Shown here in pieces: positions 28,969 to 53,458 of a stretch of 64,000 nt of DNA. The stretch lies in the NCBI RefSeq assembly GCF_014196455.1, contig NZ_JACIDS010000006.1, positions 62,001-126,000 on the forward strand, written 5' to 3'. The DNA comes from Kaistia hirudinis (GTDB taxonomy: Bacteria > Pseudomonadota > Alphaproteobacteria > Rhizobiales > Kaistiaceae). Below the pieces are notes generated by a model, which saw nothing but the letters and a program-made list of their open reading frames with translations, had not been told where the DNA came from and did not search any database. How positions within the stretch are numbered: the first letter of the stretch is position 1; every line of letters starts with the position of its first letter. Position numbers and translations under genes: made by a program.

Positions 28969-28996
28969 GGGTGTGGTCCCTTGTTTCGCGAATGGA

Positions 28997-31842: not shown

Positions 31843-31900
31843 TTGATTGATGTCAATTTATGACGTGATTTTTATCACGCGTATAGGTGATATAAGTCAC
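31843..31900. promoter_or_regulatory. Three Fnr/Crp-type dyads, 22 bp apart, in the narK-narR intergenic region
   Basis: Box 1 (31843-31856) reads TTGATTGATGTCAA, 9 of 10 positions of an Fnr site. Box 2 (31864-31879) is the perfect dyad CGTGATTTTTATCACG. Box 3 (31887-31900) is GTGATATAAGTCAC. Their centres are exactly 22 bp apart, about two helical turns, so all lie on one side of the DNA. They sit ~105 bp from narK and within 80 bp of narR, consistent with control of both by Fnr-, Dnr- or NarR-type proteins. Confidence 0.78.
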
Positions 31901-38192: not shown

Positions 38193-38613
38193 TTTGGGCT
38201 GTGCTGTTTCCGCGGACCTCGCATGTGATTCCAACTGCTCGCTTGACCGCCGGTCACCGCTCGGTCGCCGGGTCTCGAAGAGCGCTTGGGCGAGATCGTA
38301 GTGGCTGATGCGCGCAGCGGGAGATAGGCGGGCGTGCCCTGAGGTGCGCCCCGTTCTCCTGCCGGCCCGCGGTCCTCGGCCGGTATCGGCGCGGAAACAC
38401 AACGCGGTTGGTTTCGCCTCGATGTATTGCCGCGCGAACCTTGGGGCATTGGGTTGCGAGACTCGCGCGCGCGATCCGGGCAGCGGGGTTCGCCCCCGGG
38501 GTCGCGAGCCGACGCCGCACGCGCTTCCCTTGAGGTCGATTGTGTCGGGCGGCCGCTACAGGAATTCTCCGTTCGGGAGGATTCACCGCGTGACAAAATG
38601 GGAAAAGTGCCTT
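38193..38613. other. Region after attR with left-end-like sequence
   Basis: No gene is seen. The first ~75 bp resemble 2024-2100: TTCCAACTGCTC against TCCAACCGCTCC, and GGTCACCGCTCGGT at the same 60-bp offset (38252). This suggests the left end of another, older element or a shared backbone flank. Confidence 0.5.
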
Positions 38614-38638
38614 AACTGGATTGGTTAGTGGTCCAGTT
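38614..38638. promoter_or_regulatory. Inverted repeat over the GntR start, likely autoregulatory operator
   Basis: Arms AACTGGA (38614-38620) and TCCAGTT (38632-38638) are perfect inverted repeats around 11 bp. CCAGTTG is shared with the operators at 40612 and 48057, which supports recognition by the same regulator. Confidence 0.5.
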
Positions 38639-39406
38639 GTCGGTGCTCAATTGACGGTCCCTCTCTCCCCTCTGCGCGAGTCCATCCACAAGCAAACAGC
38701 CAAGGAGTTGATACGTGACAAGCTCGTCGCGCTCATCGCGTCGGGCATCCTGCAGATGGGCGACGAAATTCCGAGCGAGCGCGAGCTTGCGAGCATGTTG
38801 TCGGTCAGTCGCGAGACTGTCAGGGGGGCGATCCAGAGACTGGCCGGCGAGGGCATCGTCCAGGTTTCGCAGGGTGCCCGCACCCGTGTGGCCAAGGTCG
38901 ACGTGAACATCGCGGCACGTCGGATCGGCATCGCCAACCCTTCGGCCATCAACGGATATGACCTCGAAGCCGTGCATGGCGCCCGCCTTCTGGTGGAGGG
39001 GGCAACGGTCCGTGACGCCGCTTTGCGAATGAGCGAAGCCGATATCGGACGTCTGAAGGACTCGCTCGAGGTGCAGCGTGCCTCGAAGGATGATCCGGTT
39101 CGCTTCCTGATATGCGACAGGGAATTTCATCTGACGATCTACTATGCCTCGAGCAACCGACTGCTCGCTGATTTCGTCGTCGACCTCTACACATACATGC
39201 TCGATCACCGAAGAGCGGCGATGGGCAAGCCGGGCGCGATTGCGCAGAGTCTTCTCGATCACGAGGCCATCGTATCGGCGCTCAGCAATCGAGACCCGGA
39301 CGGCGTCGCCCGTGCATTCCACCAGCACATTGTCAGAATTTACGACACGACAGTCGCGCTGAGTGCCGGCGAACCGCACGTCAAATCCCCCGCAAACGGC
39401 AGTTGA
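38621..39406 (+). CDS. FadR-type GntR-family regulator of the denD/ABC locus
   Basis: Up to 261 aa. The TTG at 38621 or the in-frame TTG at 38651 could be the start; neither has a clear ribosome-binding site, and the first lies inside a dyad. The winged HTH spans about residues 20-90 (IRDKLVALIASGILQMGDEI, then PSERELASMLSVSRETVRGA). The FCD domain follows, with metal or ligand residues in DREFHLTIYYAS and DHEAIVSAL / FHQHIVR. FCD regulators bind small carboxylic acids, fitting sugar-acid catabolism. It is followed 20 bp later by denD. Confidence 0.9.
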   Translation: MVSGPVVGAQLTVPLSPLRESIHKQTAKELIRDKLVALIASGILQMGDEIPSERELASMLSVSRETVRGAIQRLAGEGIVQVSQGARTRVAKVDVNIAARRIGIANPSAINGYDLEAVHGARLLVEGATVRDAALRMSEADIGRLKDSLEVQRASKDDPVRFLICDREFHLTIYYASSNRLLADFVVDLYTYMLDHRRAAMGKPGAIAQSLLDHEAIVSALSNRDPDGVARAFHQHIVRIYDTTVALSAGEPHVKSPANGS

Positions 39407-39426: not shown

Positions 39427-40413
39427 ATGCGTGTCCTCATCATTGGCGCTGCGGGAATGCTTGGGCGCAAGCTTGCCACCGCTCTCGTAAAGGCAGGTTC
39501 GCTGAACGGGCGCCCGATCAGCGGTCTCGTTCTGGCGGATGTGATCGAACCGGACGCCGTCGCCTTTTCCGGCGAGGTCGAGACCCTCGACGCCGATATT
39601 TCCGAGCCAGGCAAAGCCGAAGCGCTCGTGGCGAGACGGCCCGATGTGATCTTCCATCTGGCAGCAATCGTTTCGGGCGAGGCCGAGGCGAATTTCGAGA
39701 AGGGCTATCGCGTCAATCTCGACGGTACGCGCGCGCTGTTCGAAGCGATCCGCAAGGCCGGCGAGACGGAACCCTATGCGCCGAAGCTGGTGTTCACGTC
39801 GTCGATCGTCGTTTATGGCGAGCCTCTGCCCGAGTATATCGATGACGACTATGTCGTGGCGCCCTTGACGTCCTATGGCGCCCAGAAGTCGATCTGCGAG
39901 ACGTTGCTGGCAGATTATTCACGCCGCGGCTTCTTCGACGGCATCGGAATCCGGTTGCCGACGATATCGATCCGGCCCGGCAAGCCCAATCGAGCGGCGT
40001 CCGGCTTCTTCTCCAGCATATTGAGGGAGCCGCTGATCGGCGAGCCCGCCATATTGCCGGTTTCGGACGATGTCAGACACTGGTTCGCGAGTCCTCGGGC
40101 TGCGATAGCCTTCATGATTCACGCCGCGAACCTCGATACACGGCTGCTGGGCGCCCGCCGGGCCGTGACGATGCCGGGACTATGCGCCACCGTCGGGGAC
40201 CAGATCGATGCGCTGCGCCGCATAGCCGGCGAGGATGCGACGAAGCTGATACGGCGCCAATACGATCCCGCGGTCGCCGACATCATTGCGGGCTGGCCGC
40301 GCTGCTTTCGCGCGGAGCGCGCGGAGCAACTGGGCTTCAAGGCGGAGGCTGACTTCGACGAGATCATCCGCGTTCACCTCGAGGACGAACTCGCGATCCC
40401 GGCTTCCAACTGA
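39427..40413 (+). CDS. denD: D-erythronate dehydrogenase DenD
   Basis: 328 aa from ATG 39427, with AAGG 8 nt upstream. NAD-binding motif GAAGMLGRKL is at the N-terminus (extended SDR), and active-site SSIVVYGE followed by TSYGAQKSICE gives the Ser and YxxxK. The overall sequence matches the DenD group of the NAD-dependent epimerase/dehydratase family. It oxidises D-erythronate at C2 to 2-oxo-tetronate, which OtnI, OtnK and OtnC (51410, 52190, 48613) can carry to dihydroxyacetone phosphate. It follows the GntR gene and precedes an ABC importer. Confidence 0.85.
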   Translation: MRVLIIGAAGMLGRKLATALVKAGSLNGRPISGLVLADVIEPDAVAFSGEVETLDADISEPGKAEALVARRPDVIFHLAAIVSGEAEANFEKGYRVNLDGTRALFEAIRKAGETEPYAPKLVFTSSIVVYGEPLPEYIDDDYVVAPLTSYGAQKSICETLLADYSRRGFFDGIGIRLPTISIRPGKPNRAASGFFSSILREPLIGEPAILPVSDDVRHWFASPRAAIAFMIHAANLDTRLLGARRAVTMPGLCATVGDQIDALRRIAGEDATKLIRRQYDPAVADIIAGWPRCFRAERAEQLGFKAEADFDEIIRVHLEDELAIPASN

Positions 40414-40611
40414 GCCGCCTGCATGACCCAACGGCACCAGGGCGGAGGACTTGCCGGCACAAGGGGTGCTGACGATACGCACCGTGACGCCGGTTCCGGT
40501 GCGGAGAATGCCCCATGCGCTTCCGGTCGCTCTTCGGCCGCGGATCGCGGCCTCGGGTTCGATGAGATTTCGGTCCTCGGTCGGGCGTAAAAATAGACTG
40601 GCCTGCTGGCG

Positions 40612-40627
40612 GTACCAGTTGACAAGT
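40612..40627 (+). promoter_or_regulatory. Shared 16-bp operator upstream of the ABC importer
   Basis: GTACCAGTTGACAAGT is identical to the reverse complement of 48057-48072. GTTGAC here pairs with GTCGAC 8 bp further on as an imperfect dyad. It lies 213 bp before the binding-protein start in a 426-bp gap (40414-40839) without other recognisable features. It probably binds the FadR-type GntR protein encoded at 38621. Confidence 0.65.
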
Positions 40628-40839
40628 TGATGTCGACACTTCAGTTTGACTTGAACGCCAGATTGCGGATCGAAGCGCGCGCGATCGGAGCGAAAAGCGG
40701 AGGGAAGCGCGCTTCCGAACGGCGAATACAGCCCGCATCTCGATGGGTTGGGTTCCGCTGCGTAGCTGCGGCTACGAGCGGCCGGCGGTTGGAGGATCGC
40801 CGATCGACAGCATGTCATTACATCAGGGAGGAGACTGAG

Positions 40840-41952
40840 TTGAAAACGCGTATGGCAGTATTGGCACTGGCGCTGTTCGGCACCGTGGCGTTGTCGCCCG
40901 TGGCCTCGGCTGCGGAGCTTTCGGTTCCAGCATTCTCGACGGACGAGATCAAGAGCACCGGTCCCAACGGCGAAGCTGCCGTCTCGGCGACGAAGCTGTC
41001 GCTGACCGACGAGGAATTGAAGAAGCTGAAGGATGGGCACTTCAAGGTGGCCATGGCCTTCCACATGCTCTCCAACGAGATGAACAACACCGAGCTCGCG
41101 GCGCTGAAGGACACGTTCGAGAAGCTCGGCGTCGAGGTCGTCGGCGTGACCGACGCGCAGATGAAGGTCGAGACGCAGGTCGCGAACATCGAGAGCCTGA
41201 TGGCGCTCCATCCCGACGCGATCCTCAGCACGCCCATCGATCCGGTATCCACGGAGGCCAGCTACCGGGCCGCGGCCAAGGCCGGGGCGAAGATCGTGTT
41301 CATCGAGAACATCGCCGCCAATTTCAAGCCGGGCGTCGACTATGTCAGCGCCGTCGCGGCCGATAATTTCGGCAACGGCATGGCCGCCGCCGACATCATG
41401 GCGGAAGCGATCGGCGGCAAGGGCGAGGTCGGTGTCGTCTTCTTCGACGCCAATTTCTTCGTGACGACCCAGCGCTCCGACGGCTTCAAGTACCGGATCC
41501 AGAACGCCTACCCGGACATCAAGATCGTCGCCGAAGCCGGCTTCACGGACCAGAATCGGGTCAGCGAGGTTGCGGACGGCATGCTCGCCAATCATCCGAA
41601 CCTTGCCGGCGTCTTCGCCGTCTGGGACGTTCCCGCGGAGGGCGTGATGGCGTCCGCCAAGTCGGCGGGACGGAACGATCTGGTCATCACCACGATCGAT
41701 CTCGGTGCCAATGTGGCCCGCATCATCGCCGAAGACGGCATGATCAAGGGACTGGGTGCGCAGCGGCCTTATGACCAGGGCGTGGCGATCGCCATGGCGA
41801 CGGCATACGGACTGATCGGCAAGCCCGCACCGGCCTTCATCGCGGTCCCGGCGCTGCCGGTTGTCCGCGGCAACCTGCTCGAGGCTTGGAAAGAGGCTTA
41901 CCACAAGGATGCTCCGAAGGAGCTGGCCGACCTGGTGGCGAAGAAGCAATAG
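40840..41952 (+). CDS. Sugar ABC transporter periplasmic binding protein (RbsB/peripla_BP_4 type)
   Basis: 370 aa from TTG 40840, with GGGAGGAG 6 nt upstream; ATG 40852 would shorten the basic n-region. The signal peptide ends at ASA-AE. The fold is a type I periplasmic binding protein, with FKVAMAFHMLSNEMNN opening domain 1 and IDPVSTEASYRAA in the ligand cleft. It presents a sugar or sugar acid to the permease encoded at 43699. The link to denD suggests erythronate-like acids, which is inferred from context. A strong hairpin follows the gene. Confidence 0.9.
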   Translation: MKTRMAVLALALFGTVALSPVASAAELSVPAFSTDEIKSTGPNGEAAVSATKLSLTDEELKKLKDGHFKVAMAFHMLSNEMNNTELAALKDTFEKLGVEVVGVTDAQMKVETQVANIESLMALHPDAILSTPIDPVSTEASYRAAAKAGAKIVFIENIAANFKPGVDYVSAVAADNFGNGMAAADIMAEAIGGKGEVGVVFFDANFFVTTQRSDGFKYRIQNAYPDIKIVAEAGFTDQNRVSEVADGMLANHPNLAGVFAVWDVPAEGVMASAKSAGRNDLVITTIDLGANVARIIAEDGMIKGLGAQRPYDQGVAIAMATAYGLIGKPAPAFIAVPALPVVRGNLLEAWKEAYHKDAPKELADLVAKKQ

Positions 41953-41967
41953 ACCACGCCGGCAATC

Positions 41968-42004
41968 GGCTGTCAGGCGGGGCAGTTCACCCCGCCTGAC
42001 AGCC
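41968..42004 (+). other. Intercistronic hairpin after the binding-protein gene
   Basis: Perfect 15-bp arms with a 7-nt loop and no T run. Such stems after a binding-protein gene usually stabilise the upstream transcript and give it higher expression than the ATPase and permease. The other bases up to 42177 show nothing. Confidence 0.7.
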
Positions 42005-42177
42005 GAGAAGCCATGCCTGAGGCAAGCGTGTACCATCGCCGGGAGATCACTCCCGGCGCTGCACTCAGGCCTGATCGGCGCCGGCGGCGATGGATGGCGT
42101 GATCCGTGCTCATGCGACGCGGTGCCGTTCCCAGCATCATGACGAAATCGAATGTCCATTGACCAGGAGACTGACGC

Positions 42178-43689
<1,512 letters not shown>

Positions 43690-43698
43690 GTCTGTCTC

Positions 43699-44661
43699 AT
43701 GCATAATCTTCTCACTCGCTTCGATCTGGCGAAAAATATCGTCTATATCGCGTTCTTCATCGCGATCATATTCTTCGCAATCACGCTCGGAGACAGATTC
43801 TATTCGATAACCAATATCCTGAATATAACGCGACAAACCGCGATGATATCGATCATGGCGGTGACGATGACGTTCGTTATCTCGACCGGCCAGATCGATC
43901 TGTCGATCGGCTCGATCGCGGCGCTGGCGTCCCTGATTGTCGCGCTGATGCTGCAATCGACGGAAAACATAGCGCTTTCCGTGTTTGTCGGCCTCGGCTT
44001 CGGGATGGTCACCGGCGCGTTGAACGGCATTCTCATCACTGCCTTGGGCGTTCCCGCATTCCTCGTGACGCTGGGCATGATGGGCATCATCAAGGGGCTC
44101 GCGATGTGGATCACCGCCACGACCGCGATCCCCATCAGGGTCGACGACTACAACACGATCTTTGGTCTCGGGACCGTGTTCGGCATTCCGATTCTCTTCG
44201 TGTGGACCCTCGTCGCACTGGCGATCGGCCTGTTCGTCATGAACTACACGACCTTCGGCAAGAAGGCGCTGGCCGTGGGCGGCAACGAGGTCGCCGCGCG
44301 ATACAGCGGCGTGAATGTCAGGAACATCAAGATCATTGCGATGACCATGTCCGGCTTCACGGCGGCGTTCGCCGGCATTCTCTATTCCGGACGAATGCAG
44401 GCGGGTCGCTTCACGTTCGGCGAAGGCGATGAGCTGACAGTGATTGCCGCAGTCATCCTCGGTGGAACCAGCCTCTTTGGGGGGACTGCCAATGTGTTTG
44501 GGGCCGTGGTCGGCTCGTTGCTGATCGGCATCATCAACAATGGCCTGATCCTTGGCGGACTGACGGTCAGCCAGCAGATGATGGTTCGTGGCGTCATCGT
44601 CATTCTGGCGACCGCGCTCGGGACGAGAGGCCGCTTCTTCCGAAAGAAGACTCCGAGCTGA
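43699..44661 (+). CDS. Sugar ABC transporter permease (RbsC type)
   Basis: 320 aa with 8-10 membrane helices. The family motif GQIDLSIGSIAALASL and the cytoplasmic GGNEVAARYSGVNV coupling region are visible, with a second conserved AAVILGGTSLFGG. It forms the channel with the ATPase encoded 9 bp upstream. Its first ~130 bp are notably AT-rich compared with neighbours. No strong ribosome-binding site precedes the ATG, so coupling to the ATPase gene is likely. Confidence 0.94.
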   Translation: MHNLLTRFDLAKNIVYIAFFIAIIFFAITLGDRFYSITNILNITRQTAMISIMAVTMTFVISTGQIDLSIGSIAALASLIVALMLQSTENIALSVFVGLGFGMVTGALNGILITALGVPAFLVTLGMMGIIKGLAMWITATTAIPIRVDDYNTIFGLGTVFGIPILFVWTLVALAIGLFVMNYTTFGKKALAVGGNEVAARYSGVNVRNIKIIAMTMSGFTAAFAGILYSGRMQAGRFTFGEGDELTVIAAVILGGTSLFGGTANVFGAVVGSLLIGIINNGLILGGLTVSQQMMVRGVIVILATALGTRGRFFRKKTPS

Positions 44662-45092
44662 CAACCCGGGTTCGCCCGGTCAGCATGACGGGTCCGTCGG
44701 GGGCGATCCTTCGCTTCCGGCAGGCGCTCCGGGATGGTCGAGCATCGCGACGAGTCCCGCTCCTGCAGCACGAGCCATGAGTGGATCACCCCGGCCGATG
44801 GGATGCGGAACCCATGCTCGCGCCGTTCGAACCTGGCGACGCGTCCCGATCCCCATGCATTTCGCCGTTCGTGATGCCATGGCGTCGACACAGACCAGAC
44901 GTGAAGCCGATGCTTGAAAGCTGACGGCAGGCCTCGTCGCGTCGGGTCGCCGAGGACGATGTCTATCGGATGGGCACGACCTCGGGCCGATGGCCGACGC
45001 GAGCCGGCTGCCCCGAGCGCGGCCCGCAAGTTGGACTGTTCCGGTCCGATCGCCGCGGCCTGGAGGGCGAGACTGGCGGCCATCTACCAAGC

Positions 45093-45129
45093 AAATCGGG
45101 GTCGACGGCTGTGCCGTCGACCCCGATTT
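45093..45129. terminator. Bidirectional terminator between convergent operons
   Basis: A perfect 16-bp stem (arms starting AAATCGGGG and ending CCCCGATTT) with a 5-nt loop. A/T ends flank both sides, so it can serve the ABC operon and the FAD-oxidoreductase gene. The rest of the 532-bp gap 44662-45193 has no gene. Confidence 0.75.
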
Positions 45130-45193
45130 CGTTGTGCGGCGCGTCTGCGGATCGCTCCAGGCGCTGATCCACCATGCGCGCTCCCGACGCGCG

Positions 45194-46570
45194 CTACTGT
45201 GCCGGGATGGTCTCGGTTGCCTCGTCTAACGTGCCGAGCACGGCGCCCTTGGCCCGCAGCTTCGCCTGAATATCGGCAACCGGCACCTTGGCGACCTCGA
45301 TGCCGTCTCGCGCGGCGATCGTTGCGGCATAGGCTGCCGCCTCTCCGGTCATCGTGCAGGCGGGCACATTGCGTGTCGAACCGTAGGCGACTTCATCAAC
45401 CGAAATGCAGCGACCCGCCATGATCAGGTTGCCGGTATGCGCCGGCAGCATGCACCGGAAGGGAATCCCGTAGCCCTCGCCGACATTGTCCATGATCGCG
45501 CGACTGCCCCCGGGCTCGTGCACGTCGACCGGCGAGTTGCAAAGCCCGATCGCATCGGCGAAGCGCGCCTGGCCGCGCACATCGGCTTCCGTCAGCACAT
45601 ATTGGCCGAGGATGCGCCGGGTCTCGCGCACGCCGAGCTTCGGCGCGACCTCGAGGAAGATTGCCTTGTCGAAGCCGTCGACATAACGCTGCAGAAAGTC
45701 GAAGGCACAATAGGCCTGCTTGCGGATCTCGATCTCGGCACGGCTGAGATCCCGATCGTCGAGACCGTTGCCCTGAAAGCGCGTGACGTTGACGCTGATC
45801 TCGCCGGGGATGAGCCCGGTCTTCATGGTGATGTGGTCTTTCGGGATGATCCAGTTGAAGCCTTCCTTCCGGGCCTCCTCGATCCGCCGCGTGAAGCCCG
45901 TCAGCAGGACGGCCATCACATAGTCCTCGTTGCGATCACCGGCTTCCTTGGGATGGACCAGTTCCCACATGTCGTCGCTGTGCTTGCGGCAGTCCGCCAC
46001 CAGGGCGGGCACATCGACGTTGAGCAGGCGGAAATAGGACGTGATCGGCTGGGTCAGGCCATCCTTCTTTCGTCCGAGCATGAACTCGGCGCCGGCAAGC
46101 GCGGCGACATCGCCGTCGCCCGACGCATCGATGAAGACCTTGCCGAGCACGAGGCTTGTGCCCGATTTCGTCTGGATCGTCAGGCCTTCGAGCTTCTCGC
46201 CATCCATGACGACGCCCGTCACCATCGCCCGCAGCAGCACTTCAACGTCCGCTTCCTCGACCATCTCGATGATGACGCGCTGCATCACCTCGGCGTCGAA
46301 GGTGCCGGTGTACTTTCCCCAGTAGGATTCGCGGATACGCCCATCGGCGCCCTTGTAGCCGACGCAGCGGTCGATCATTTCCTGAAAGACGCCGCCATTG
46401 ATCAATCCGGTCGGCTTGGTCAGCCGGCCGCCCGTGATCAGGCCGCCAAGAAAGCCCGTTCCCTCGAGCAGCAATGTCCGGGCGCCCTCGCGCGCCGCCC
46501 GGATGGCGGCGACAATTCCGGAGGAGCCGGCTCCGATAACTACGACGTCGTACGATCCGAATAGATTCAT
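45194..46570 (-). CDS. FAD-dependent oxidoreductase (PF12831 type)
   Basis: 458 aa from ATG 46570, with AAGGGA 6 nt upstream. The N-terminal Rossmann motif is VVVIGAGSSGIVAAIRAARE. The IDASGDGDVAALAGAEF segment and the C-terminal HTGNLIMAGRCISVDEVAYGS are typical of the 'FAD-dependent oxidoreductase' family often placed in sugar or sugar-acid operons. It follows the LVIVD gene by 49 bp. The substrate is unknown. The shared operator ties it to the denD/ABC locus, so it may act on the same imported compound. Confidence 0.85.
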   Translation of the reverse strand: MNLFGSYDVVVIGAGSSGIVAAIRAAREGARTLLLEGTGFLGGLITGGRLTKPTGLINGGVFQEMIDRCVGYKGADGRIRESYWGKYTGTFDAEVMQRVIIEMVEEADVEVLLRAMVTGVVMDGEKLEGLTIQTKSGTSLVLGKVFIDASGDGDVAALAGAEFMLGRKKDGLTQPITSYFRLLNVDVPALVADCRKHSDDMWELVHPKEAGDRNEDYVMAVLLTGFTRRIEEARKEGFNWIIPKDHITMKTGLIPGEISVNVTRFQGNGLDDRDLSRAEIEIRKQAYCAFDFLQRYVDGFDKAIFLEVAPKLGVRETRRILGQYVLTEADVRGQARFADAIGLCNSPVDVHEPGGSRAIMDNVGEGYGIPFRCMLPAHTGNLIMAGRCISVDEVAYGSTRNVPACTMTGEAAAYAATIAARDGIEVAKVPVADIQAKLRAKGAVLGTLDEATETIPAQ

Positions 46571-46619
46571 CGTCATTCCCTTGGCAGTCCGGTGCTCTGA
46601 TATGTTTGTGGGGCGACGA

Positions 46620-47870
46620 TCAGCCGCCAAACTCCATCACGGAGAGGCCGGCGTTGTAATCGGTCACATAGATCAGGCCGCTCTGCTCGACGAATATGTC
46701 GCAGCTCTGGATGATCTTCTTCTTGCCGGGTCTCTTATCCATGAGCTCCGTCGGCGCGGCCGGGATCAGCGCGCCGACTTCCTTCGGCGAATAGGCGTTG
46801 GAAATATCGTGGACCCGCACGCCTGCGTTCTGCCAGGTCGAGAAGATGATGCTGGAACTCTGGAACGTCCCCGGCCTGTTCTCATGGATGTTGTGGGGAC
46901 CGTAATGCGCGCCGCGATAGCGATAATCGGCCTCGGCCGGCTCGGGCAGCGTGGCGATCGAGATCGGGTTTGCTGGGACCCGAACATCGAAGATCCAAAT
47001 GTTCTTGCGCCCGTCCTCGTAGTCGTCGAGCACGGCCTCGTCGAGGACGACCAACAGATCACGGTCAGCCAGAGGCAGACAATTGTGGGTTCCGCCCTGA
47101 AAAGGAGGCGACCAATTGTGATGCTTGATCAGCTTCGGCTTGGACCGATCGGCGACATCCATCACCACCAGCCCGGCGTCTCGCCATGCGCCATAGGCGA
47201 TGTCGCCGTCGACGAGCGCATGGTGGAGGCCGAACTTGCTGCTGGCCGGCCAGCTTGGCGTCTCGCCCGCCGCGAGGTTCATGCCCGGCAGCCAGTAGCG
47301 GCCGGCCTCCCGGGGGTTCGCGGGATCGGACATATCGACTGTCATGAAGATGAAGTCGCTGAAACCGTCGAGCAGCGCGGAGACATAGGCCCAGCGGCCG
47401 CCCGTGTACCAGATCCGGTGAATACCGCCCGAGACGGGCATGAAGCCGATGCGGCGCGGGCTGTCTCCCTTGGATATGTCGTATACGGCCATGCCCGCGT
47501 CCCAGTCGCGGGCGGATTTCGGGGCCGCAGTGCCGAGGGCAGCGCCGGCGGACGCCTTGTAGTAGCTCGCCTCATCGGCAAAGGCGGCGTCGGCGAAGAC
47601 ATCCTTGCCGTGGATGACCAGGAGCAGGTTGTCGTGAACCTGCAGATGCACATTCCATGTGTTGGGCGGCGCCTGAACATAGGTGCAGAAGCGGATGTTC
47701 TTCGGATCCCTGACGTCGAGGACCGTGAAGCCCCGGCTGAACAGATGTCCGATATAGGCATAGCCGTTCTGGACCATGACCTGGATGCCGTCGCGGCGAC
47801 CGCCCTGATCCGAATGGCCGATGAGGCGCATGTTGCGCACATATTCTGGAGAGGGAAGAGTGTTGGTCAC
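46620..47870 (-). CDS. LVIVD-repeat beta-propeller protein
   Basis: 416 aa from GTG 47870; earlier codons fall in the divergent promoter and do not look coding. Repeated FTVLDVRDP, MAVYDISK, MTVDMSDP, GLVVMDVADRS, IWIFDVR and VRVHDISN units mark a beta-propeller of the LVIVD type. No signal peptide is seen. Histidines are spaced through the blades (HSDQGG, VHLQVHDN, HRIWYTGG, HHALVDGD, GTHNCLP, NIHENRPG) and could bind a metal, as in selenium-binding-like propellers. It is co-directional with the FAD enzyme. Confidence 0.82.
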   Translation of the reverse strand: MTNTLPSPEYVRNMRLIGHSDQGGRRDGIQVMVQNGYAYIGHLFSRGFTVLDVRDPKNIRFCTYVQAPPNTWNVHLQVHDNLLLVIHGKDVFADAAFADEASYYKASAGAALGTAAPKSARDWDAGMAVYDISKGDSPRRIGFMPVSGGIHRIWYTGGRWAYVSALLDGFSDFIFMTVDMSDPANPREAGRYWLPGMNLAAGETPSWPASSKFGLHHALVDGDIAYGAWRDAGLVVMDVADRSKPKLIKHHNWSPPFQGGTHNCLPLADRDLLVVLDEAVLDDYEDGRKNIWIFDVRVPANPISIATLPEPAEADYRYRGAHYGPHNIHENRPGTFQSSSIIFSTWQNAGVRVHDISNAYSPKEVGALIPAAPTELMDKRPGKKKIIQSCDIFVEQSGLIYVTDYNAGLSVMEFGG

Positions 47871-48056
47871 GTGCCTGCTGCTCCGACATGGCGATGCGAA
47901 ATCGTAAGGGCGGAAACGGGACACAGCCGTGCACGCGCCATTGCGCACGTGCTTGCGGCCCCTTTGGCCGCAATCAAAACCCGCGACCCCCTTTCGGCTC
48001 CATCCCCCTCGTCACCCGATCGCGCGACGATGCGAGCACACTAGTGGTTGACTTGC

Positions 48057-48072
48057 ACTTGTCAACTGGTAC
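48057..48072 (-). promoter_or_regulatory. Shared 16-bp operator in the LVIVD/GlcG divergent promoter
   Basis: Reverse-complement copy of the 40612 site. Here GTTGAC and GTCAAC form a 6-bp dyad with an 8-bp centre (about 48047-48066). It sits between the divergent LVIVD and GlcG-like genes and could control both. Confidence 0.65.
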
Positions 48073-48107
48073 TAACAGCGGACCAGCTTTGCCCGGGGGA
48101 TAGTCCT

Positions 48108-48530
48108 ATGAGCGCCAACGATCTTCTCCTTCTTCGCCCCCGCCTGACGATTGCGGCGGCGAAGGCCATTGCCGCCGCCGCAGAAGCTGCCGCACTGGAG
48201 CGGCAGGTGAGGCTCGTCATCGCGATCGTCGATGAAGGAGGCCATCTGATGCTGCTCCATCGCGACGACGACGCCCAGGTCGGCAGTGTCGAGATCGCGA
48301 CGCTGAAGGCACGTACGGCGGTTCTGTTTCGCCGGCAAACAAAAGCCTTCCAGGATGTCGTCGAGGGCGAGGGCCGCCTTGCGCTCCTGTGCATCCCCAA
48401 TGGAATACCTCTGGATGGCGGCGTGTTGCTGAAGTCCGGCGACGTGATCATCGGCGCGATCGGAGTGAGCGGCGCATCCGATGAAATCGACGGCGATATC
48501 GGGCGGATCGGCGCTGCGTTGCTGGGCTGA
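48108..48530 (+). CDS. GlcG/HbpS-family protein
   Basis: 140 aa from ATG 48108, with GGGGGA upstream. The helical start LTIAAAKAIAAAAEAAAL and IVDEGGHLMLLHRDD, then GGVLLKSGDVIIGAIGVSG, fit the GlcG/HbpS family exactly. Members are small cytoplasmic or secreted proteins of uncertain function: HbpS binds heme, and PduO-C and GlcG accompany diol or glycolate catabolism. It is divergent from the LVIVD/FAD genes and convergent with otnC. Confidence 0.88.
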   Translation: MSANDLLLLRPRLTIAAAKAIAAAAEAAALERQVRLVIAIVDEGGHLMLLHRDDDAQVGSVEIATLKARTAVLFRRQTKAFQDVVEGEGRLALLCIPNGIPLDGGVLLKSGDVIIGAIGVSGASDEIDGDIGRIGAALLG

Positions 48531-48612: not shown

Positions 48613-49296
48613 TCAGGCGGACGGCTCCTCGTGGTCGTGATGCTCGTGACCGGCCGGCAGTGTCAGCCCGAAGGTCTTCACGAGGTCATCGACCTGATCC
48701 GGCGTCAGATAGCGCGGGTTCAAATTGCGCAGCAGCAAATAGAGCCGCGCCGTTTCCTCAAGTTCCTCCGTCGCGAACACGGCCGCCTCGAGGCTGTCGC
48801 CTGCGACGACCGGACCGTGATTGGCGAGCAGGATCGACGAATACTGCCCCGACAGGCCCCTGATGGCATCGGCGACGGCCGGATCACCAGGACGATAATA
48901 GGGTATGAGCGCGGTCTGTCCGGCGCGCATCAGGTAATAGGGCGTCATCGGCGGCAGCGCCGCGCGCGGATCGATCTCCGGCAGCATGGTCAGCGCCACG
49001 GCGTGCGTCGAGTGGAGATGGACGATGGCGCGCGCGCCGGGGCGCGTCTCGTAGACCGCCGAATGGAGCGGGATCTCCTTGGTCGGCCGGTCACCGGAAA
49101 CGAGGTTGCCTTTGCCGTCGAGACGCGTGATCCGGGCGGGGTCGAGAAAGCCGAGCGACGCATTGGTCGGCGTCACCAGCCAGCCGCCATCATCGAGCCG
49201 GATCGAAATATTGCCCGACGAGCCCGGCGTCAGGCCGCGCTCGAACAGCGAGCGGCCGAAACGGCAGATATCTTCTCTGAGGCTGTTTTCGGACAT
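48613..49296 (-). CDS. otnC: 3-oxo-tetronate 4-phosphate decarboxylase OtnC (class II aldolase family)
   Basis: 227 aa. The class II aldolase/adducin fold shows phosphate-binding PGSSGNIS, zinc-ligand HLHSTHA and ANHGPVV. The C-terminus is His-rich (HEHHDHEE). It decarboxylates 3-oxo-tetronate 4-phosphate to dihydroxyacetone phosphate, the last step of erythronate/threonate catabolism. It follows the LacI gene by 12 bp on the same strand, while the other enzymes of the pathway lie divergent beyond the LacI operators. Confidence 0.88.
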   Translation of the reverse strand: MSENSLREDICRFGRSLFERGLTPGSSGNISIRLDDGGWLVTPTNASLGFLDPARITRLDGKGNLVSGDRPTKEIPLHSAVYETRPGARAIVHLHSTHAVALTMLPEIDPRAALPPMTPYYLMRAGQTALIPYYRPGDPAVADAIRGLSGQYSSILLANHGPVVAGDSLEAAVFATEELEETARLYLLLRNLNPRYLTPDQVDDLVKTFGLTLPAGHEHHDHEEPSA

Positions 49297-49308
49297 GCAA
49301 TCCTCTCT

Positions 49309-50304
49309 TCAGACAGTCGCGCCCTCGACGAGGCGGAAGCCGCAATCGACGGTCTGCGGCGGGGCATCGTCGAGGACGAGTTGGGCTGCGATCCGGCCGA
49401 TCTCGTCGCGCGGTGTCTCGATCGTCGTCAGCGGCTGTGGCGTGTGCCGGGCGATGTCGAGGCCGTTGAAACCCATGATCGCGAGTTGGCCGGGAACGGC
49501 GATCCCAGCCTCGAGGCAATGGAAATAGCCGCCGAGCGCCATGTCGTCGTTCGAGAAATACACGGCGTCGAGCTGCGGCTGCCGCGCCATCAGCGCCGCG
49601 AGACCGATGCGGCCTTCTCCGACCGAGGAGCGAACGGCCCGGATATCCTCGCTGGCCGGCGCCAGCCCGGCTTCGGCAAGGGTCTCACGAAATCCGGCAA
49701 GGCGCTTGCCGGCGCGCGTGTCCTGGCCGATGTCGTGACCGACATAGCCGATGCGTCGATAGCCGCGCTGGACCATATGCAAGGCGCTGACCCGTCCGGC
49801 GGTGCGGTTCGAGAAGCCCACCGCCAGGTCCTGCGGCGTTCCGTCGATGTCGAGCAGCTCGGCGATCCGGCAGCCGGCCGCCCGAAGCATCCTGCGCGTG
49901 CCCTCGGCATGTTCGAGGCCGGCGAGCATGACAGCCGCCGGCCGCCAGGCGAGCATCGCCGCGACGAGCGCTTCCTCGCGCGACGGTTCATATTCGGAGA
50001 CGGCGAAGACCGCCTGCCGCCGGCCCGCCTCCAGCGTCTGCGCGACGCCGCGCAGCACGTCGGCGAAGACGATATTGCTCAGCGACGGCACGACGATCGC
50101 CACCAGCGGCGAGCCGGTCGAGGCCAGAGCTCCGGCGATCCGGTTCGGCACATAGCCGAGCGTCTCGACGGCGGCCATGACTCGCGCCCGGGTCTTTTCC
50201 GAGAAAGAGCCGTGATCCCGCAGCACGCGCGACACGGTGCTCTCGCCGACGCCGGCCGCCTCCGCGACGTCCAGCAGCGTGATCGACGTGCTCCTCTGCT
50301 CCAT
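49309..50304 (-). CDS. LacI-family regulator of tetronate catabolism
   Basis: 331 aa. The N-terminal HTH with hinge reads ITLLDVAEAAGVGESTVSRV. A periplasmic-binding-protein-like effector domain follows, with FSNDDMALGGYFHCLEAGI near the C-terminal half. The DNA-binding domain is of the kind that recognises central-CG palindromes, in line with the three TGGCAGCGCTGCCA sites directly upstream. The effector is probably threonate, erythronate or a product, inferred from the neighbours. Confidence 0.92.
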   Translation of the reverse strand: MEQRSTSITLLDVAEAAGVGESTVSRVLRDHGSFSEKTRARVMAAVETLGYVPNRIAGALASTGSPLVAIVVPSLSNIVFADVLRGVAQTLEAGRRQAVFAVSEYEPSREEALVAAMLAWRPAAVMLAGLEHAEGTRRMLRAAGCRIAELLDIDGTPQDLAVGFSNRTAGRVSALHMVQRGYRRIGYVGHDIGQDTRAGKRLAGFRETLAEAGLAPASEDIRAVRSSVGEGRIGLAALMARQPQLDAVYFSNDDMALGGYFHCLEAGIAVPGQLAIMGFNGLDIARHTPQPLTTIETPRDEIGRIAAQLVLDDAPPQTVDCGFRLVEGATV

Positions 50305-50368
50305 GACCGTCCCCGGGCGCCTCTCTCAGCTTCAATCTCCCCGGCGCGAACGGAAAATGCAACCAATA

Positions 50369-50437
50369 TTGGCAGCGCTGCCAAATCGGTATTGGCAGCG
50401 CTGCCAACGTCACCTATGACAAATGGCAGCGCTGCCA
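50369..50437. promoter_or_regulatory. Three perfect LacI-type palindromic operators
   Basis: TTGGCAGCGCTGCCAA occurs at 50369-50384 and 50392-50407, and TGGCAGCGCTGCCA at 50424-50437. Centres are 23 and 31 bp apart, in the 153-bp gap between divergent lacI and ltnD. The even length and central CG are typical LacI/PurR-class half-site geometry. They would let one repressor close both promoters. Confidence 0.88.
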
Positions 50438-50457
50438 TCGCGATCCTGGAGCTCATC

Positions 50458-51405
50458 TTGTCATCAGGGGTATCCGAACTGGCTTCCTCCGTCGCCCATC
50501 GATCTGCATCCCGGGTCGCCATCATCGGGCTGGGCTCGATGGGCATGGGCATCGCCAACGCGCTGCACCGAGCGGATCTCGACGTCGTCGGTTTCGACGT
50601 ATCAGCCGAGGCGAGGGCTCGCTTCGTCGAACAGGGCGGCCGAGGCGCGGCGTCCGCGGCCGACGCTGCTGAGGGCGCGGATATCGTCGTGTCGGTGGTT
50701 GTCAGTGGCGCACAGACCGAGGCGATGCTGTTCGGAGCCGGCGGCCTGGCGGATGTCATGAAGGCGGGCGCCGTGTTCGTCTCCTCCGCCACGATGGACC
50801 CCGCCGTTGCACGCGGCCTGGCGGCACGCCTCGAGGCCAGATCGGTCCATTATCTCGACGCGCCGATTTCCGGCGGCGCGGCGCGGGCCGCGGCAGGGGC
50901 GTTGACGGTGATGGCTTCCGGATCGCCGGAGGCTTTCATGCGGGCGCGCCCCGCACTCGACGCGATGGCGGCCAAGGTTCATGAACTCGGGGATGCCGCT
51001 GGCCTCGGCGCATCCTTCAAGATGATCAACCAGCTCCTGGCCGGCATTCATATCGCCGCCGCCAGCGAGGCCATCGCTCTGGCGGCGAAACTGGGCCTCG
51101 ATCTCGACAAGGTCTACGAGGTCATCACCGCCTCCGCCGGCAATTCCTGGATGTTCGAGAACCGCATTCCGCATGTGCTTTCCGGCGACTATGCCCCGCA
51201 CAGCGCCGTCGAGATCTTCGTGAAGGATCTCGGCATCGTCCAGGACATGGCGCGCGGCACGCGCTATCCGGCACCGCTCGGCGCCGCCGCGCTGCAGATG
51301 TATCTCGCCGCCTCCGGACTTGGCATGGGACGGGAGGACGATGCCTCGCTCGCCCGTGTCTACGCCCTGTTGTCCGGCGCGGTGCTGCCCACGAAGGAGA
51401 GCTGA
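50458..51405 (+). CDS. ltnD: L-threonate dehydrogenase LtnD (beta-hydroxyacid dehydrogenase family)
   Basis: 315 aa from TTG 50458, with GGAG 6 nt upstream; an in-frame ATG at 50416 would put the third operator inside the gene. It has NAD motif IIGLGSMGMG, substrate-binding DAPISGGAARAAAGAL, catalytic-Lys region FKMINQLLAGIH, and SAGNSWMFENR. This set matches the LtnD group, which oxidises L-threonate at C2 for OtnI. It is the first gene of ltnD-otnI-otnK. D-threonate or erythronate remain alternative substrates. Confidence 0.87.
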   Translation: MSSGVSELASSVAHRSASRVAIIGLGSMGMGIANALHRADLDVVGFDVSAEARARFVEQGGRGAASAADAAEGADIVVSVVVSGAQTEAMLFGAGGLADVMKAGAVFVSSATMDPAVARGLAARLEARSVHYLDAPISGGAARAAAGALTVMASGSPEAFMRARPALDAMAAKVHELGDAAGLGASFKMINQLLAGIHIAAASEAIALAAKLGLDLDKVYEVITASAGNSWMFENRIPHVLSGDYAPHSAVEIFVKDLGIVQDMARGTRYPAPLGAAALQMYLAASGLGMGREDDASLARVYALLSGAVLPTKES

Positions 51406-51409
51406 TCCC

Positions 51410-52186
51410 GTGCCTGTCTTCGCCGCCAACCTTTCCATGATGTTCACAGAATGGTCGTTTCTCGACCGCTTCGATGCTGCGGCGGATGCCGGGTTTCGCG
51501 CCGTGGAGTATCTCTTCCCTTATGAGCATGCGCCGGAAGCGATTGCAGGAAAGCTCGCCCGAAACGGTCTGACGCAGGCGCTGTTCAACGCGCCGCCGGG
51601 CAATTGGTCCGCCGGCGAGCGAGGTCTCGCGGCGCTTGCCGGCCGTTTCCAGGAATTCGACGCCGGCCTCTCCCGCGCGCTGCTCTATGCGGAGGCGACG
51701 GGCGTCAAGCGTGTCCATGTCATGGCCGGGATCGCCGACCGGGCCGATGCCGAGGCCGACGCGCGCTATCGCGCTGCGCTTCACCACGCCGCCGAGCGCT
51801 TCGCCGCGCAGGGGCTCGATCTGGTCATCGAGCCCATCAACCAGCGCAACATGCCCGGCTATTTCCTGAACGATTTCGCCTATGCCGCCGGGCTGATCGG
51901 CGCGCTCGGGCTTCCCAATCTCAAGCTGCAGTTCGACCTCTATCACTGCCAGATCATTCATGGCGACGTGACGATGCGGCTGCGGGCATTGCTGCCGATC
52001 ATCGGCCATGTGCAGGTCGCGAGCGTTCCCTCGCGGAACGAGCCTGACGGCGAGGAGCTCAATTTCCCGTATCTGTTCGGTGAACTCGACCGCCTCGGCT
52101 ACGAGGGCTTCGTCGGCTGCGAATATAATCCGCGCGGAAAGACGCTGGACGGCCTCGGCTGGTTCAAGCCGTTCGAAGGACGCTGA
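51410..52186 (+). CDS. otnI: 2-oxo-tetronate isomerase OtnI (hydroxypyruvate-isomerase family)
   Basis: 258 aa from GTG 51410, with AAGGAG upstream. It is a TIM barrel of the AP-endonuclease-2/Hyi type. The opening ANLSMMFTEWSFLDRF, EPINQRNMPGYFL, QFDLYHCQIIHGD and VGCEYNPRGKTLDGLGW carry the metal ligands (Glu, Asp, His, Glu). It interconverts 2-oxo- and 3-oxo-tetronate. It sits 4 bp after ltnD and 3 bp before otnK. Confidence 0.9.
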   Translation: MPVFAANLSMMFTEWSFLDRFDAAADAGFRAVEYLFPYEHAPEAIAGKLARNGLTQALFNAPPGNWSAGERGLAALAGRFQEFDAGLSRALLYAEATGVKRVHVMAGIADRADAEADARYRAALHHAAERFAAQGLDLVIEPINQRNMPGYFLNDFAYAAGLIGALGLPNLKLQFDLYHCQIIHGDVTMRLRALLPIIGHVQVASVPSRNEPDGEELNFPYLFGELDRLGYEGFVGCEYNPRGKTLDGLGWFKPFEGR

Positions 52187-52189
52187 ACC

Positions 52190-53458
52190 ATGGCTCTTCT
52201 TCTCGGTTGCATCGCGGACGATTACACCGGCGCGTCCGATCTCGCCAACACCCTGACGCGAAACGGCCTGCGTACGGTCCAGACCATCGGGATCCCCGAC
52301 GCGTCGCTGCCCCTGCCGGATGTCGACGCCGTGGTCGTGTCGCTGAAGATCCGCTCGGTCGTGGCATCCGAGGCCATTGCAGCCGCGCTTGCGGCCGAGG
52401 CGTGGATCCGGCAGCGCGGCGCGCGCCATGTCCTCTACAAGATCTGCTCGACATTCGATTCGACCGATGCCGGCAATATCGGGCCGGTGACCGAAGCGCT
52501 GGTCGCGGCGGCGGGGAGCGACATCGCGCTGGTCACCCCGGCCTTCCCCGAAACCGGCCGCACGGTCTATCGCGGTCACCTCTTCGTCAACGGCCAGCCG
52601 CTCGACGAGAGCCCGCTCAAGGATCATCCGCTGAATCCGATGCATGACGCCGATCTCGTCCGGGTGCTGCAGCGCCAGTCGAAAGGCGGAGTCGGGCTGG
52701 TCGATCTCGAGACGATCGCCGATGGCGAGGCGGCCATCGCCGCGCGTCTTGCCGCCCTGGCGGCGGAAGGAAACACGGCGGCCATCGCCGACGCCGTCTT
52801 CGAGCGCGATCTCGTGTTGCTCGGGTCCGTCGCGGCGCGGTTCTCCGTCTCGACCGGCGCGTCGGGGCTGGGGCTCGGCCTTGCGCGGGCGCTCCGACCG
52901 GCCGACCGAGCCTCCGCGACGGCCGATGCGCTTGCCCCCGTGGGCGGCTATGCAGCCGTCATCGCCGGCAGCTGTTCGCGGGCCACGCTCGAACAGATCG
53001 ATCGTGCGGAGAGGTCGATGCCGGTGCTGCGGCTCGACCCGGAGGCGCTGATCGACGGCGAGACCGAGATTGCGAAGGCAATCGCCTTTGCCGACGCGCA
53101 TGTCGCTGACGGTCCCTTGGTCATCGCCGCCAGTGCACCGCCCGATGCCGTTGCCGCGCTGCAGGCGCGCCATGGCCGGGAGGCGTCGGGTCATGCCATA
53201 GAGCGGGCGACCTCGGCCATTGCGGCGGCATTGGTCGAGCGCGGCGTCCGCAGGCTCGTTGTCGCCGGCGGGGAAACGTCTGGCGCGGCAGTCGACCGCC
53301 TCGGCATACCCGCCTTTCTGATCGGTCCCGAGATCGCGCCAGGCGTCCCCGTCCTGCAGACGGTCGGCGACGCGCATGGCGGTCTGATCATGGCGCTGAA
53401 GTCCGGCAATTTCGGCGGCAAGGACTTCTTCGAGCAAGCGCTCGCCGCCATGCGCTGA
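52190..53458 (+). CDS. otnK: 3-oxo-tetronate kinase OtnK (DUF1537/four-carbon acid sugar kinase)
   Basis: 422 aa, standard length. The N-terminal domain starts GCIADDYTGASDLANTL, followed by YKICSTFDSTDAGNIGP and TPAFPETGRTVYRGHLFV. The C-terminal nucleotide-binding domain includes VVAGGETSGAAV and the closing MALKSGNFGGKDFF. It phosphorylates 3-oxo-tetronate at C4 for OtnC. It is the last gene of the ltnD-otnI-otnK unit. Confidence 0.93.
   Translation: MALLLGCIADDYTGASDLANTLTRNGLRTVQTIGIPDASLPLPDVDAVVVSLKIRSVVASEAIAAALAAEAWIRQRGARHVLYKICSTFDSTDAGNIGPVTEALVAAAGSDIALVTPAFPETGRTVYRGHLFVNGQPLDESPLKDHPLNPMHDADLVRVLQRQSKGGVGLVDLETIADGEAAIAARLAALAAEGNTAAIADAVFERDLVLLGSVAARFSVSTGASGLGLGLARALRPADRASATADALAPVGGYAAVIAGSCSRATLEQIDRAERSMPVLRLDPEALIDGETEIAKAIAFADAHVADGPLVIAASAPPDAVAALQARHGREASGHAIERATSAIAAALVERGVRRLVVAGGETSGAAVDRLGIPAFLIGPEIAPGVPVLQTVGDAHGGLIMALKSGNFGGKDFFEQALAAMR

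What the first reader, a model, noticed from the sequence alone, without database searches (positions are those of the whole stretch)
40612..48072. Identical 16-bp operator links the ABC importer with the FAD/LVIVD/GlcG locus
GTACCAGTTGACAAGT occurs upstream of the binding protein and, inverted, in the LVIVD/GlcG divergent promoter. CCAGTTG also occurs in the dyad at the GntR start. A single FadR-type regulator probably controls import, DenD and the three unknown genes as one regulon.
Basis: partly seen in the sequence, partly recalled or inferred. Interest (0 to 1): 0.6.

Follow-up and report, generated by a model that had tools for sequence, protein, structure and literature searches.

The report
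Shared repressor site for tetronate genes
Three promoters in this bacterium carry the same likely regulator binding site, which ties a sugar importer and a sugar-acid enzyme to three genes of unknown job, and the two halves of the site lie unusually far apart for this regulator family.

Summary
The 16-mer is real: two exact copies, both here, in the 5.26-Mb assembly; the next best places have 3 mismatches. It is not the operator itself but its right part. Orthologous loci (18 from other genomes plus one same-genus relative) show an inverted repeat, ACTGG-N13-CCAGT, present three times in the window: C (38615-38637, gntR-denD), A (40597-40619, importer) and B (48065-48087 minus, LVIVD-FAD, divergent from glcG). 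In these 20 loci all 41 such sites lie at the gntR start (20) or an importer/LVIVD promoter (21). A matrix built from 17 of the other loci ranks C, B, A as the top three positions of the window. Site form largely follows the GntR tree. Sites overlap -35 or -10 boxes, as expected of a repressor. New: half-sites 17 bp apart (GT-N11-AC) against 2-3 nt typical of FadR-subfamily sites (PMC4494728). FAD, LVIVD and GlcG genes accompany this GntR in 14, 15 and 18 of 20 loci, giving three obscure families a D-erythronate-type context. LVIVD models as a beta-propeller nearest a phosphotriesterase.

The parts
38590..38618 (+). gntR-denD promoter: GTGACA (-35) - N17 - TAACTG (-10); the -10 overlaps the left operator arm
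   Evidence: same GTGACA-N17-TAACTGG arrangement in 20 of 20 orthologous loci
38615..38637 (+). operator C, ACTGG-N13-CCAGT, at the gntR start
   Evidence: E 0.002 in the whole genome; top position of the window
38651..39406 (+). GntR regulator, FCD (FadR) subfamily; start placed at TTG 38651 by eye against the ATG starts of orthologs
   Evidence: PF00392 and PF07729 above cut-off; start from upstream sequences
39427..40413 (+). DenD, D-erythronate dehydrogenase, probably in one operon with gntR
   Evidence: NF043036 376.8 bits, cut-off 325
40597..40627 (+). operator A (23-bp dyad 40597-40619 plus outer half-site ACAAGT 40622-40627); holds the 16-mer 40612-40627 and the -35 TTGACA 40619-40624
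   Evidence: not reported by model R1
40840..41952 (+). periplasmic sugar-binding protein of the importer
   Evidence: PF13407
42178..43689 (+). importer ATPase (ribose/xylose/arabinose type)
   Evidence: PF00005, two stretches; best NCBIfam hits below their cut-offs
43699..44661 (+). importer permease
   Evidence: PF02653
45194..46570 (-). FAD-dependent oxidoreductase of unknown substrate
   Evidence: PF12831 362.6 bits
46620..47870 (-). LVIVD-repeat beta-propeller protein, followed by the FAD gene; start GTG 47870 by comparison with orthologs
   Evidence: PF08309 46.7 bits, cut-off 20.2; AF2 model mean pLDDT 73.8
48038..48065 (-). likely LVIVD-FAD promoter: TTGACA (48065-48060) - N16 - TAGTGT (48043-48038)
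   Evidence: sister importer promoters read TTGACA-N17-TAGCGT in 15 of 15 loci
48057..48087 (-). operator B (dyad 48065-48087 plus outer half-site ACAAGT 48057-48062), between LVIVD and glcG
   Evidence: (E 0.17)
48108..48530 (+). GlcG/HbpS-like protein
   Evidence: PF03928 104.2 bits

Best explanation
The FCD-type GntR encoded at 38651-39406 is an autoregulated repressor of one local regulon. It reads half-sites ACTGG(T/A)C placed as an inverted repeat 17 bp apart centre to centre. Copies of this operator sit on the -10 of gntR-denD (C), on the -35 of the importer (A) and on the -35 of LVIVD-FAD next to divergent glcG (B), so bound regulator would keep RNA polymerase off. A sugar acid of the erythronate kind, bound at the FCD metal site, would release it. 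The importer and the FAD, LVIVD and GlcG proteins then probably serve uptake and first conversion of a compound that ends as D-erythronate, which DenD and the Otn enzymes would turn into glycolytic carbon. Shown by sequence: the sites, their conservation, their place on promoter-like elements, the gene linkage. Inferred: that this GntR binds them, repression, the effector and the enzyme steps. The likeliest division of labour, with weak support only, is an FAD oxidation followed by a metal-dependent propeller hydrolase (lactone opening).
For: Sites: rare in the genome; model R1, from 32 sites of 17 other loci, reports in the own genome up to E 10 only C and B (the tool scored 150 of 786 first-look candidates); a matrix from the same sites ranks C 34.1, B 21.5, A 12.9 as the top three of the 64-kb window, the next being 7.9. 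Conservation: 41 dyads in 20 loci, at gntR or importer/LVIVD promoters; in L079-L096 69 strand-wise hits (35 sites) against about 2.2 expected from base composition; in the 20 loci spacing N13 gives 79 strand-wise hits, no other spacing from 0 to 30 more than 12. Site and regulator: in a tree of 82 GntRs the dyad without inner pair is in 20 of 20 of the window's clade, while 50 of the other 62 carry a nested form; the recognition helix is nearly invariant in both. Against LacI as binder: no LacI hit in L079-L096, which keep the sites. Promoters: TTGACA-N17-TAGCGT in 15 of 15, GTGACA-N17-TAACTGG in 20 of 20. Function: DenD and OtnK above their equivalog cut-offs; D156, H160, H204, H226 of the FCD domain invariant in 82 of 82.
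Against: Site A is weak: model R1 did not report it in the genome at E<=10 or in the window at E<=1 (the G004 copy of A reached E 0.47), and it scores 12.9 in the matrix. The site form does not follow the tree perfectly: five further rows (L097 beside the window's clade; L124, L135, L149, L153 elsewhere) also have the dyad without inner pair, and 7 rows show the inner pair only by my patterns. No binding, expression or effector data exist. The -10 of promoter A (CAGTTT) is poor. The otnC/ltnD/otnI/otnK genes of the window have no such site and sit beside a LacI gene. L091 and L093 keep the gntR site without FAD/LVIVD/GlcG hits in the stretch held, L091 also without DenD. Repression rather than activation rests on position only.
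Confidence: 0.8

Rival explanations
1. The shared 16-mer is mainly a duplicated strong promoter element (a -35 TTGACA with flanks) and carries no operator.
For: The 16-mer holds TTGACA, with a promoter-like -10 at the right distance in 15 of 15 sister importer promoters (17 bp) and in B (16 bp).
Against: The left arm, upstream of the -35, is invariant (ACTGG in 32 of 32 sites of the alignment, which were chosen by a pattern requiring it), and the gntR sites carry the same dyad on the -10 instead of the -35.
Confidence: 0.07
2. Another regulator, for example the LacI protein at 49309-50304, binds the sites.
For: LacI lies next to the class II aldolase gene and resembles gluconate-type LacI regulators, below their cut-offs.
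Against: L079-L096 have the sites but no LacI hit in the stretch held; the site form largely follows the GntR tree.
Confidence: 0.05
3. The GntR binds classical FadR-type pairs (half-sites 9 bp apart), and the N13 pairing is only what is left of a nested four-box site.
For: Importer and LVIVD sites keep an inner box at the classical distance (<=1 mismatch to CTGG in 12 of 21, six of them from the window and its two nearest relatives) and an outer box CAAG or the like (<=1 mismatch in 18 of 21); upstream of the other 62 GntRs (50-62% identical) the best four-box fit has <=3 mismatches over 16 letters in 50 of 62 (best position within about 330 bases each).
Against: The 20 gntR sites of the window's clade have no inner box (0 of 20 with <=1 mismatch); three of its four columns have 0.19-0.35 bits and the fourth is an invariant A where the box has G; the 2-fold axis with the best pairing is the N13 one in both site classes (57% of pairs; next best 48% in importer sites at the classical axis and 46% in gntR sites at another axis).
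Confidence: 0.2

Closest known systems
FadR-subfamily (FCD) GntR regulators such as DgoR, LldR, PdhR, GlcC
   Same: Domain make-up; regulons of oxidised substrates; half-site of the TKGT/ACMA kind (PMC4494728, passages read); DgoR binds a sugar acid through a metal in its FCD domain and acts on inverted repeats over its promoter (PMC7674646, passages read).
   Different: GT-AC distance 11 nt in the window's dyads against 3 nt (some groups 2 nt) in the survey PMC4494728.
'Additional boxes' 7-12 nt from the centre of GntR-family sites (PMC4494728, section 17 read)
   Same: The outer boxes of the nested form sit about that far out.
   Different: Here, in the gntR sites, one outer box and the opposite inner box are the whole site; in the survey the boxes are weaker extras of unknown function.
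[quoted passage not shown]
   Same: DenD/Otn pathway for D-erythronate and L-threonate.
   Different: DeoR-type regulator and an mfs gene; no FAD/LVIVD/GlcG genes named in the passages read.
NanR of E. coli (best solved-structure hit of the GntR, 6on4)
   Same: Same FCD group, best NCBIfam hit (141.7 bits).
   Different: Below the NanR cut-off of 260; NanR reads direct repeats TGGTATAW (PMC4494728).
Haloalkylphosphorus hydrolase (phosphotriesterase) of Sphingobium TCM1, 5hrm
   Same: Best fold match of the LVIVD model (Foldseek E 1.6e-15; VIA Z 31.5, rmsd 3.5, 356 aligned, 20% identity) and weak whole-sequence profile match (E 6.5e-4, no single stretch significant).
   Different: Metal ligands not compared; many unrelated propellers score Z 29-31 too; no substrate known.

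Membership tests
FadR (FCD) subfamily of GntR regulators | GntR winged-helix domain and FCD domain | tested here: met
   PF00392 64.2 bits (cut-off 27), PF07729 85.8 bits (cut-off 24.3)
FadR (FCD) subfamily of GntR regulators | Asp/His metal-ligand set in the FCD domain | tested here: inconclusive
   D156, H160, H204, H226 invariant in 82 of 82 rows; that they are the ligands is recalled and was not superposed on a structure
FadR (FCD) subfamily of GntR regulators | Operator TKGT-N2..3-ACMA (typical of the subfamily, not what defines it; some members are known to differ) | tested here: not met
   gntR sites of the clade have the half-sites at GT-N11-AC and no inner box in 20 of 20; importer sites hold a degenerate inner box
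NanR | NF003011 score above cut-off | tested here: not met
   141.7 against 260 bits
DenD, D-erythronate dehydrogenase | NF043036 score above cut-off | tested here: met
   376.8 against 325 bits
DenD, D-erythronate dehydrogenase | Oxidation of D-erythronate | not testable with these tools
   needs enzyme assay
LVIVD-repeat proteins | PF08309 above cut-off | tested here: met
   46.7 against 20.2 bits
Sphingobium-type phosphotriesterase / metal-dependent propeller hydrolase | Propeller fold with matching metal ligands | tested here: inconclusive
   fold match; several invariant histidines in 13 orthologs; ligands not superposed
HbpS/GlcG family | PF03928 above cut-off | tested here: met
   104.2 against 25 bits

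The most novel reading that the evidence does not exclude
This GntR clade uses a different quaternary arrangement on DNA from the described FadR-type regulators: its basic unit is a pair of FadR-type half-sites 17 bp apart, on roughly opposite faces of the helix, and doubling that unit with an 8-bp shift yields the nested four-box palindromes of related rhizobial regulators. That would explain the unexplained 'additional boxes' of GntR-family sites as halves of interleaved dimers. The regulon would at the same time define an unrecognised FAD-LVIVD-GlcG entry branch into D-erythronate catabolism.
Probability: 0.4. Interest if true: 0.6.

Novelty: new variant of a known kind. Interest (0 to 1): 0.45.

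Why it matters
It turns a lone repeated word into a three-promoter regulon kept in many Rhizobiales species, ties three protein families without known role to a sugar-acid pathway and so tells what substrates to try. It also offers a comparative case, two groups of regulators with nearly the same recognition helix but different site architecture, for the open question what the extra boxes beside GntR-family operators do.

Tried and rejected
A second shared element (GTTGAC-N8-GTYRAC, giving CTGG-N13-CCAGTTGWC-N9-TYRAC, which matched the three places exactly and five others only with 3 mismatches) was my first idea of the operator. It is not conserved in orthologs and I dropped it; in B its outer part may be the -35 of glcG (not tested).

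A homology search with the binding protein gave, besides the G004 ortholog, mostly other sugar-binding paralogs. The 46-52%-identical importer loci (L040-L045) gave no hit with model R1 (E<=1). Of 19 LVIVD loci from related genomes 17 score below 10 in the matrix; the exceptions are L047, which is the G004 ortholog itself, and L062 (17.5), where by its coordinates the hit falls inside the LVIVD coding region.

In 61 genomes (own included) model R1 (E<=0.1, stricter filters) hit only the own genome, G004 and one stretch of G035; none of the 13 window proteins matches in the 3 kb held around that stretch, so it is taken as chance. Two of the 22 rows labelled gntR (L085:6874, L088:6982) are hits of the loosened pattern away from gntR and were dropped, which leaves 20.

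In one search the site B line printed with my wrong start (48064) is meaningless; the top list of the same call gives B at 48065.

The structure model of the FAD protein was poor (mean pLDDT 46) and was not used. The propeller-lactonase paper PMC12362111 (passages read) concerns a six-bladed propeller coordinating calcium and was not taken as evidence for LVIVD. Paper searches on LVIVD, on LVIVD with FAD/DUF336/GlcG terms, on erythronate, threonate, GntR and Rhizobium, and on FCD, GntR, inverted repeat, erythronate, sugar acid and operator listed no paper whose title or abstract start describes this regulon; the library lacks most subscription journals.
Full report
Observation. The word GTACCAGTTGACAAGT lies at 40612-40627 (+) and 48057-48072 (-); no other place in the window matches within 3 mismatches, and in the 5,259,388-base assembly the four other matches all have 3. 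A same-genus genome, G004, has the 13 window proteins compared in the same order at 82-88% DNA identity of the aligned blocks and keeps both copies exactly. Of 61 genomes searched, own included, only these two have the 13-mer CCAGTTGACAAGT, two copies each, all four at these places.

Genes. Pfam and NCBIfam give: GntR with FCD domain; DenD (NF043036 above cut-off); a ribose-type importer (PF13407, PF00005, PF02653); an FAD_oxidored protein (PF12831); an LVIVD-repeat protein (PF08309); a HbpS/GlcG-like protein (PF03928); then a class II aldolase, a LacI regulator, an NAD-binding hydroxyacid-dehydrogenase-type protein and 3-oxo-tetronate kinase OtnK (NF043035, 538.6 bits, cut-off 350). The names otnC, ltnD and otnI used here for the aldolase, the dehydrogenase and the ORF at 51413-52186 are recalled from the known pathway, not given by a call. 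Comparison of upstream regions with orthologs puts the GntR start at TTG 38651.

What the operator is. A scan of 84,980 species genomes with the GntR protein found 139 stretches encoding a relative, of which the best 80 were kept as L079-L158. L079-L096 (64-88% identity) with the window and L039 of G004 form one group of 20 loci. In them RCTGG-N13-CCAGT occurs at 41 places (79 strand-wise hits): 20 at the gntR start and 21 in front of an importer or LVIVD gene; other spacings from N0 to N30 give at most 12 strand-wise hits. In L079-L096 alone there are 35 places and 69 strand-wise hits against about 2.2 expected from base composition. In the whole window the three places are the only ones.

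Independent test. Model R1 was built from 32 sites of 17 loci (L080-L096), without the window, G004 and L079. In the window's genome, up to E 10, it reported only C (both strands, E 0.002 and 0.048) and B (E 0.17), 150 of 786 first-look candidates being scored; A was not reported, nor in the window at E<=1, although the G004 copy of A reached E 0.47. A symmetrised matrix from the same sites puts C (34.1), B (21.5) and A (12.9) first, second and third of the 64-kb window, with 7.9 next; of 1,197,598 background positions in the other 62 loci (GntR upstream regions left out) one reaches 12.9, a second dyad in L135 (31.7) which may be real, and the next has 12.4. In the upstream regions of those 62 GntRs the best score is 12.9 or more in 48 and 11 or more in 57. 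In 20 genomes reached through L079-L097 and L135 (17 of which gave sites to the model) every match listed at E<=0.1 lies on one contig per genome; 19 of 20 have a match, L097's genome none (150 candidates scored per genome). So the regulon looks local to this locus.

Which protein binds. The dyad is at the gntR start in 20 of 20 loci. In a tree of 82 GntRs, labelled by patterns of mine, the window's clade (20 of 20) has the N13 dyad without an inner classical pair; of the other 62, 50 have both an inner N5 pair and an N13 pair, as in ACTGATCTGCTGGACCAACCAGTGGATCAGT, which contains two N13 pairs shifted by 8 bp around the N5 pair; 5 have the N13 dyad only (L097 next to the window's clade, L124, L135, L149, L153 elsewhere); 7 show the inner pair only. 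The labels need 6 changes on the tree in all against 27.9 in shuffles, but near-copies help that, and long branches make some places unsure. The recognition helix is nearly invariant in both groups; after the winged-helix domain the window's clade has two extra residues (20 of 20 against 0 of 62). No LacI hit lies in L079-L096, which argues against LacI as the binder.

Mechanism. In 15 of 15 sister importer promoters the right arm runs into TTGACA-N17-TAGCGT; in 20 of 20 gntR promoters the left arm is part of GTGACA-N17-TAACTGG. B has TTGACA-N16-TAGTGT, A has TTGACA with a poor -10. Binding at either place should block RNA polymerase, so repression is the likely mode (inferred). In 11 of the 18 loci L079-L096 (L080-L083, L086, L087, L090, L092, L094-L096) importer genes, LVIVD and FAD lie on one strand and gntR, denD and glcG (most with otnK, aldolase and otnI between) on the other, facing away (L080 annotated in detail: ATPase, permease, binding protein, LVIVD, FAD). 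In the window's lineage the importer is a different one (binding proteins of window and L080 24-26% identical), the genes are split into more units, and both the importer and LVIVD-FAD units carry an operator. FAD is present in 14, LVIVD in 15, GlcG in 18 and DenD in 19 of the 20 loci; some loci are cut by contig ends or by the 10-kb flank. None of the 62 other GntR loci has FAD, LVIVD or GlcG at the thresholds used, within the stretch held.

Geometry. The survey PMC4494728 (passages, and section 17) gives 3 nt, in some groups 2 nt, between GT and AC for FadR-subfamily sites, names a few deviating members, and describes weaker extra boxes of unknown function 7-12 nt from the centre. Here the gntR sites have 11 nt between GT and AC and no inner box (0 of 20 within one mismatch; an outer right box within one mismatch in 2 of 20), while importer and LVIVD sites keep a degenerate inner box (12 of 21) and an outer box like CAAG (18 of 21) that is part of the -35 region as well. 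The best 2-fold axis is the N13 centre in both classes (57% of pairs complementary); the classical axis 4 bp away reaches 48% in importer and 36% in gntR sites, and another axis 46% in gntR sites.

The unknown proteins. The LVIVD model (mean pLDDT 73.8, pTM 0.82) is rich in strands and matches beta-propellers; its best match is the Sphingobium TCM1 phosphotriesterase (Foldseek E 1.6e-15; VIA Z 31.5), in VIA only just ahead of many WD40 propellers, so the propeller fold is well supported and the enzyme kinship likely but not shown; a profile search gives the same protein at E 6.5e-4 without a significant single stretch. Several histidines are invariant in 13 orthologs. GlcG's best solved-structure hit is named EfgA or glycolate utilization protein. 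The FAD protein has only general flavoprotein matches, and its model failed. A lactone-forming FAD oxidation followed by hydrolysis in the propeller is my guess for the entry branch; nothing here tests it.

Verdict. Observation confirmed; the regulon reading supported by comparative genomics; operator redefined; binding untested. Interest 0.45: a solid regulon prediction with an unusual site geometry.

Noticed in passing
G000:C4:392976-394229 (L038, L046): A second LVIVD gene, 65% identical, beside another ABC importer (ATPase and permease 36% and 30% identical to the window's); no dyad there (best matrix score 1.2). Relatives of about 60-65% identity occur in 11 of 13 other genomes of the genus and 58-63% ones in some of the family.
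   Followed up: partly
48613-53458: The class II aldolase, LacI, dehydrogenase, otnI-type and OtnK genes lie next door without the dyad and may answer to LacI, whereas in sister loci such as L080 OtnK, aldolase and otnI genes follow gntR-denD on the same strand.
   Followed up: partly
L079:11931-13138: The importer's binding-protein gene is split into two overlapping frames in this metagenome-assembled genome; either an assembly error or a broken gene.
   Followed up: no
L135:9922 and 11879: A more distant GntR (53%) has two strong dyads about 2 kb apart, one before its own start and one after DenD, so the same site geometry may govern another operon there.
   Followed up: no
GntR residues 85-86 (counted from TTG 38651): Two extra residues after the winged-helix domain in 20 of 20 of this clade and none of the 62 others; could bear on half-site spacing, although the five other dyad-only regulators lack them.
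   Followed up: partly
25231-31738: A NarG-like protein (recalled resemblance, not searched) next to a 913-residue double-length MFS-like protein that resembles fused NarK nitrate transporters, with a Crp-like regulator at 31847.
   Followed up: no
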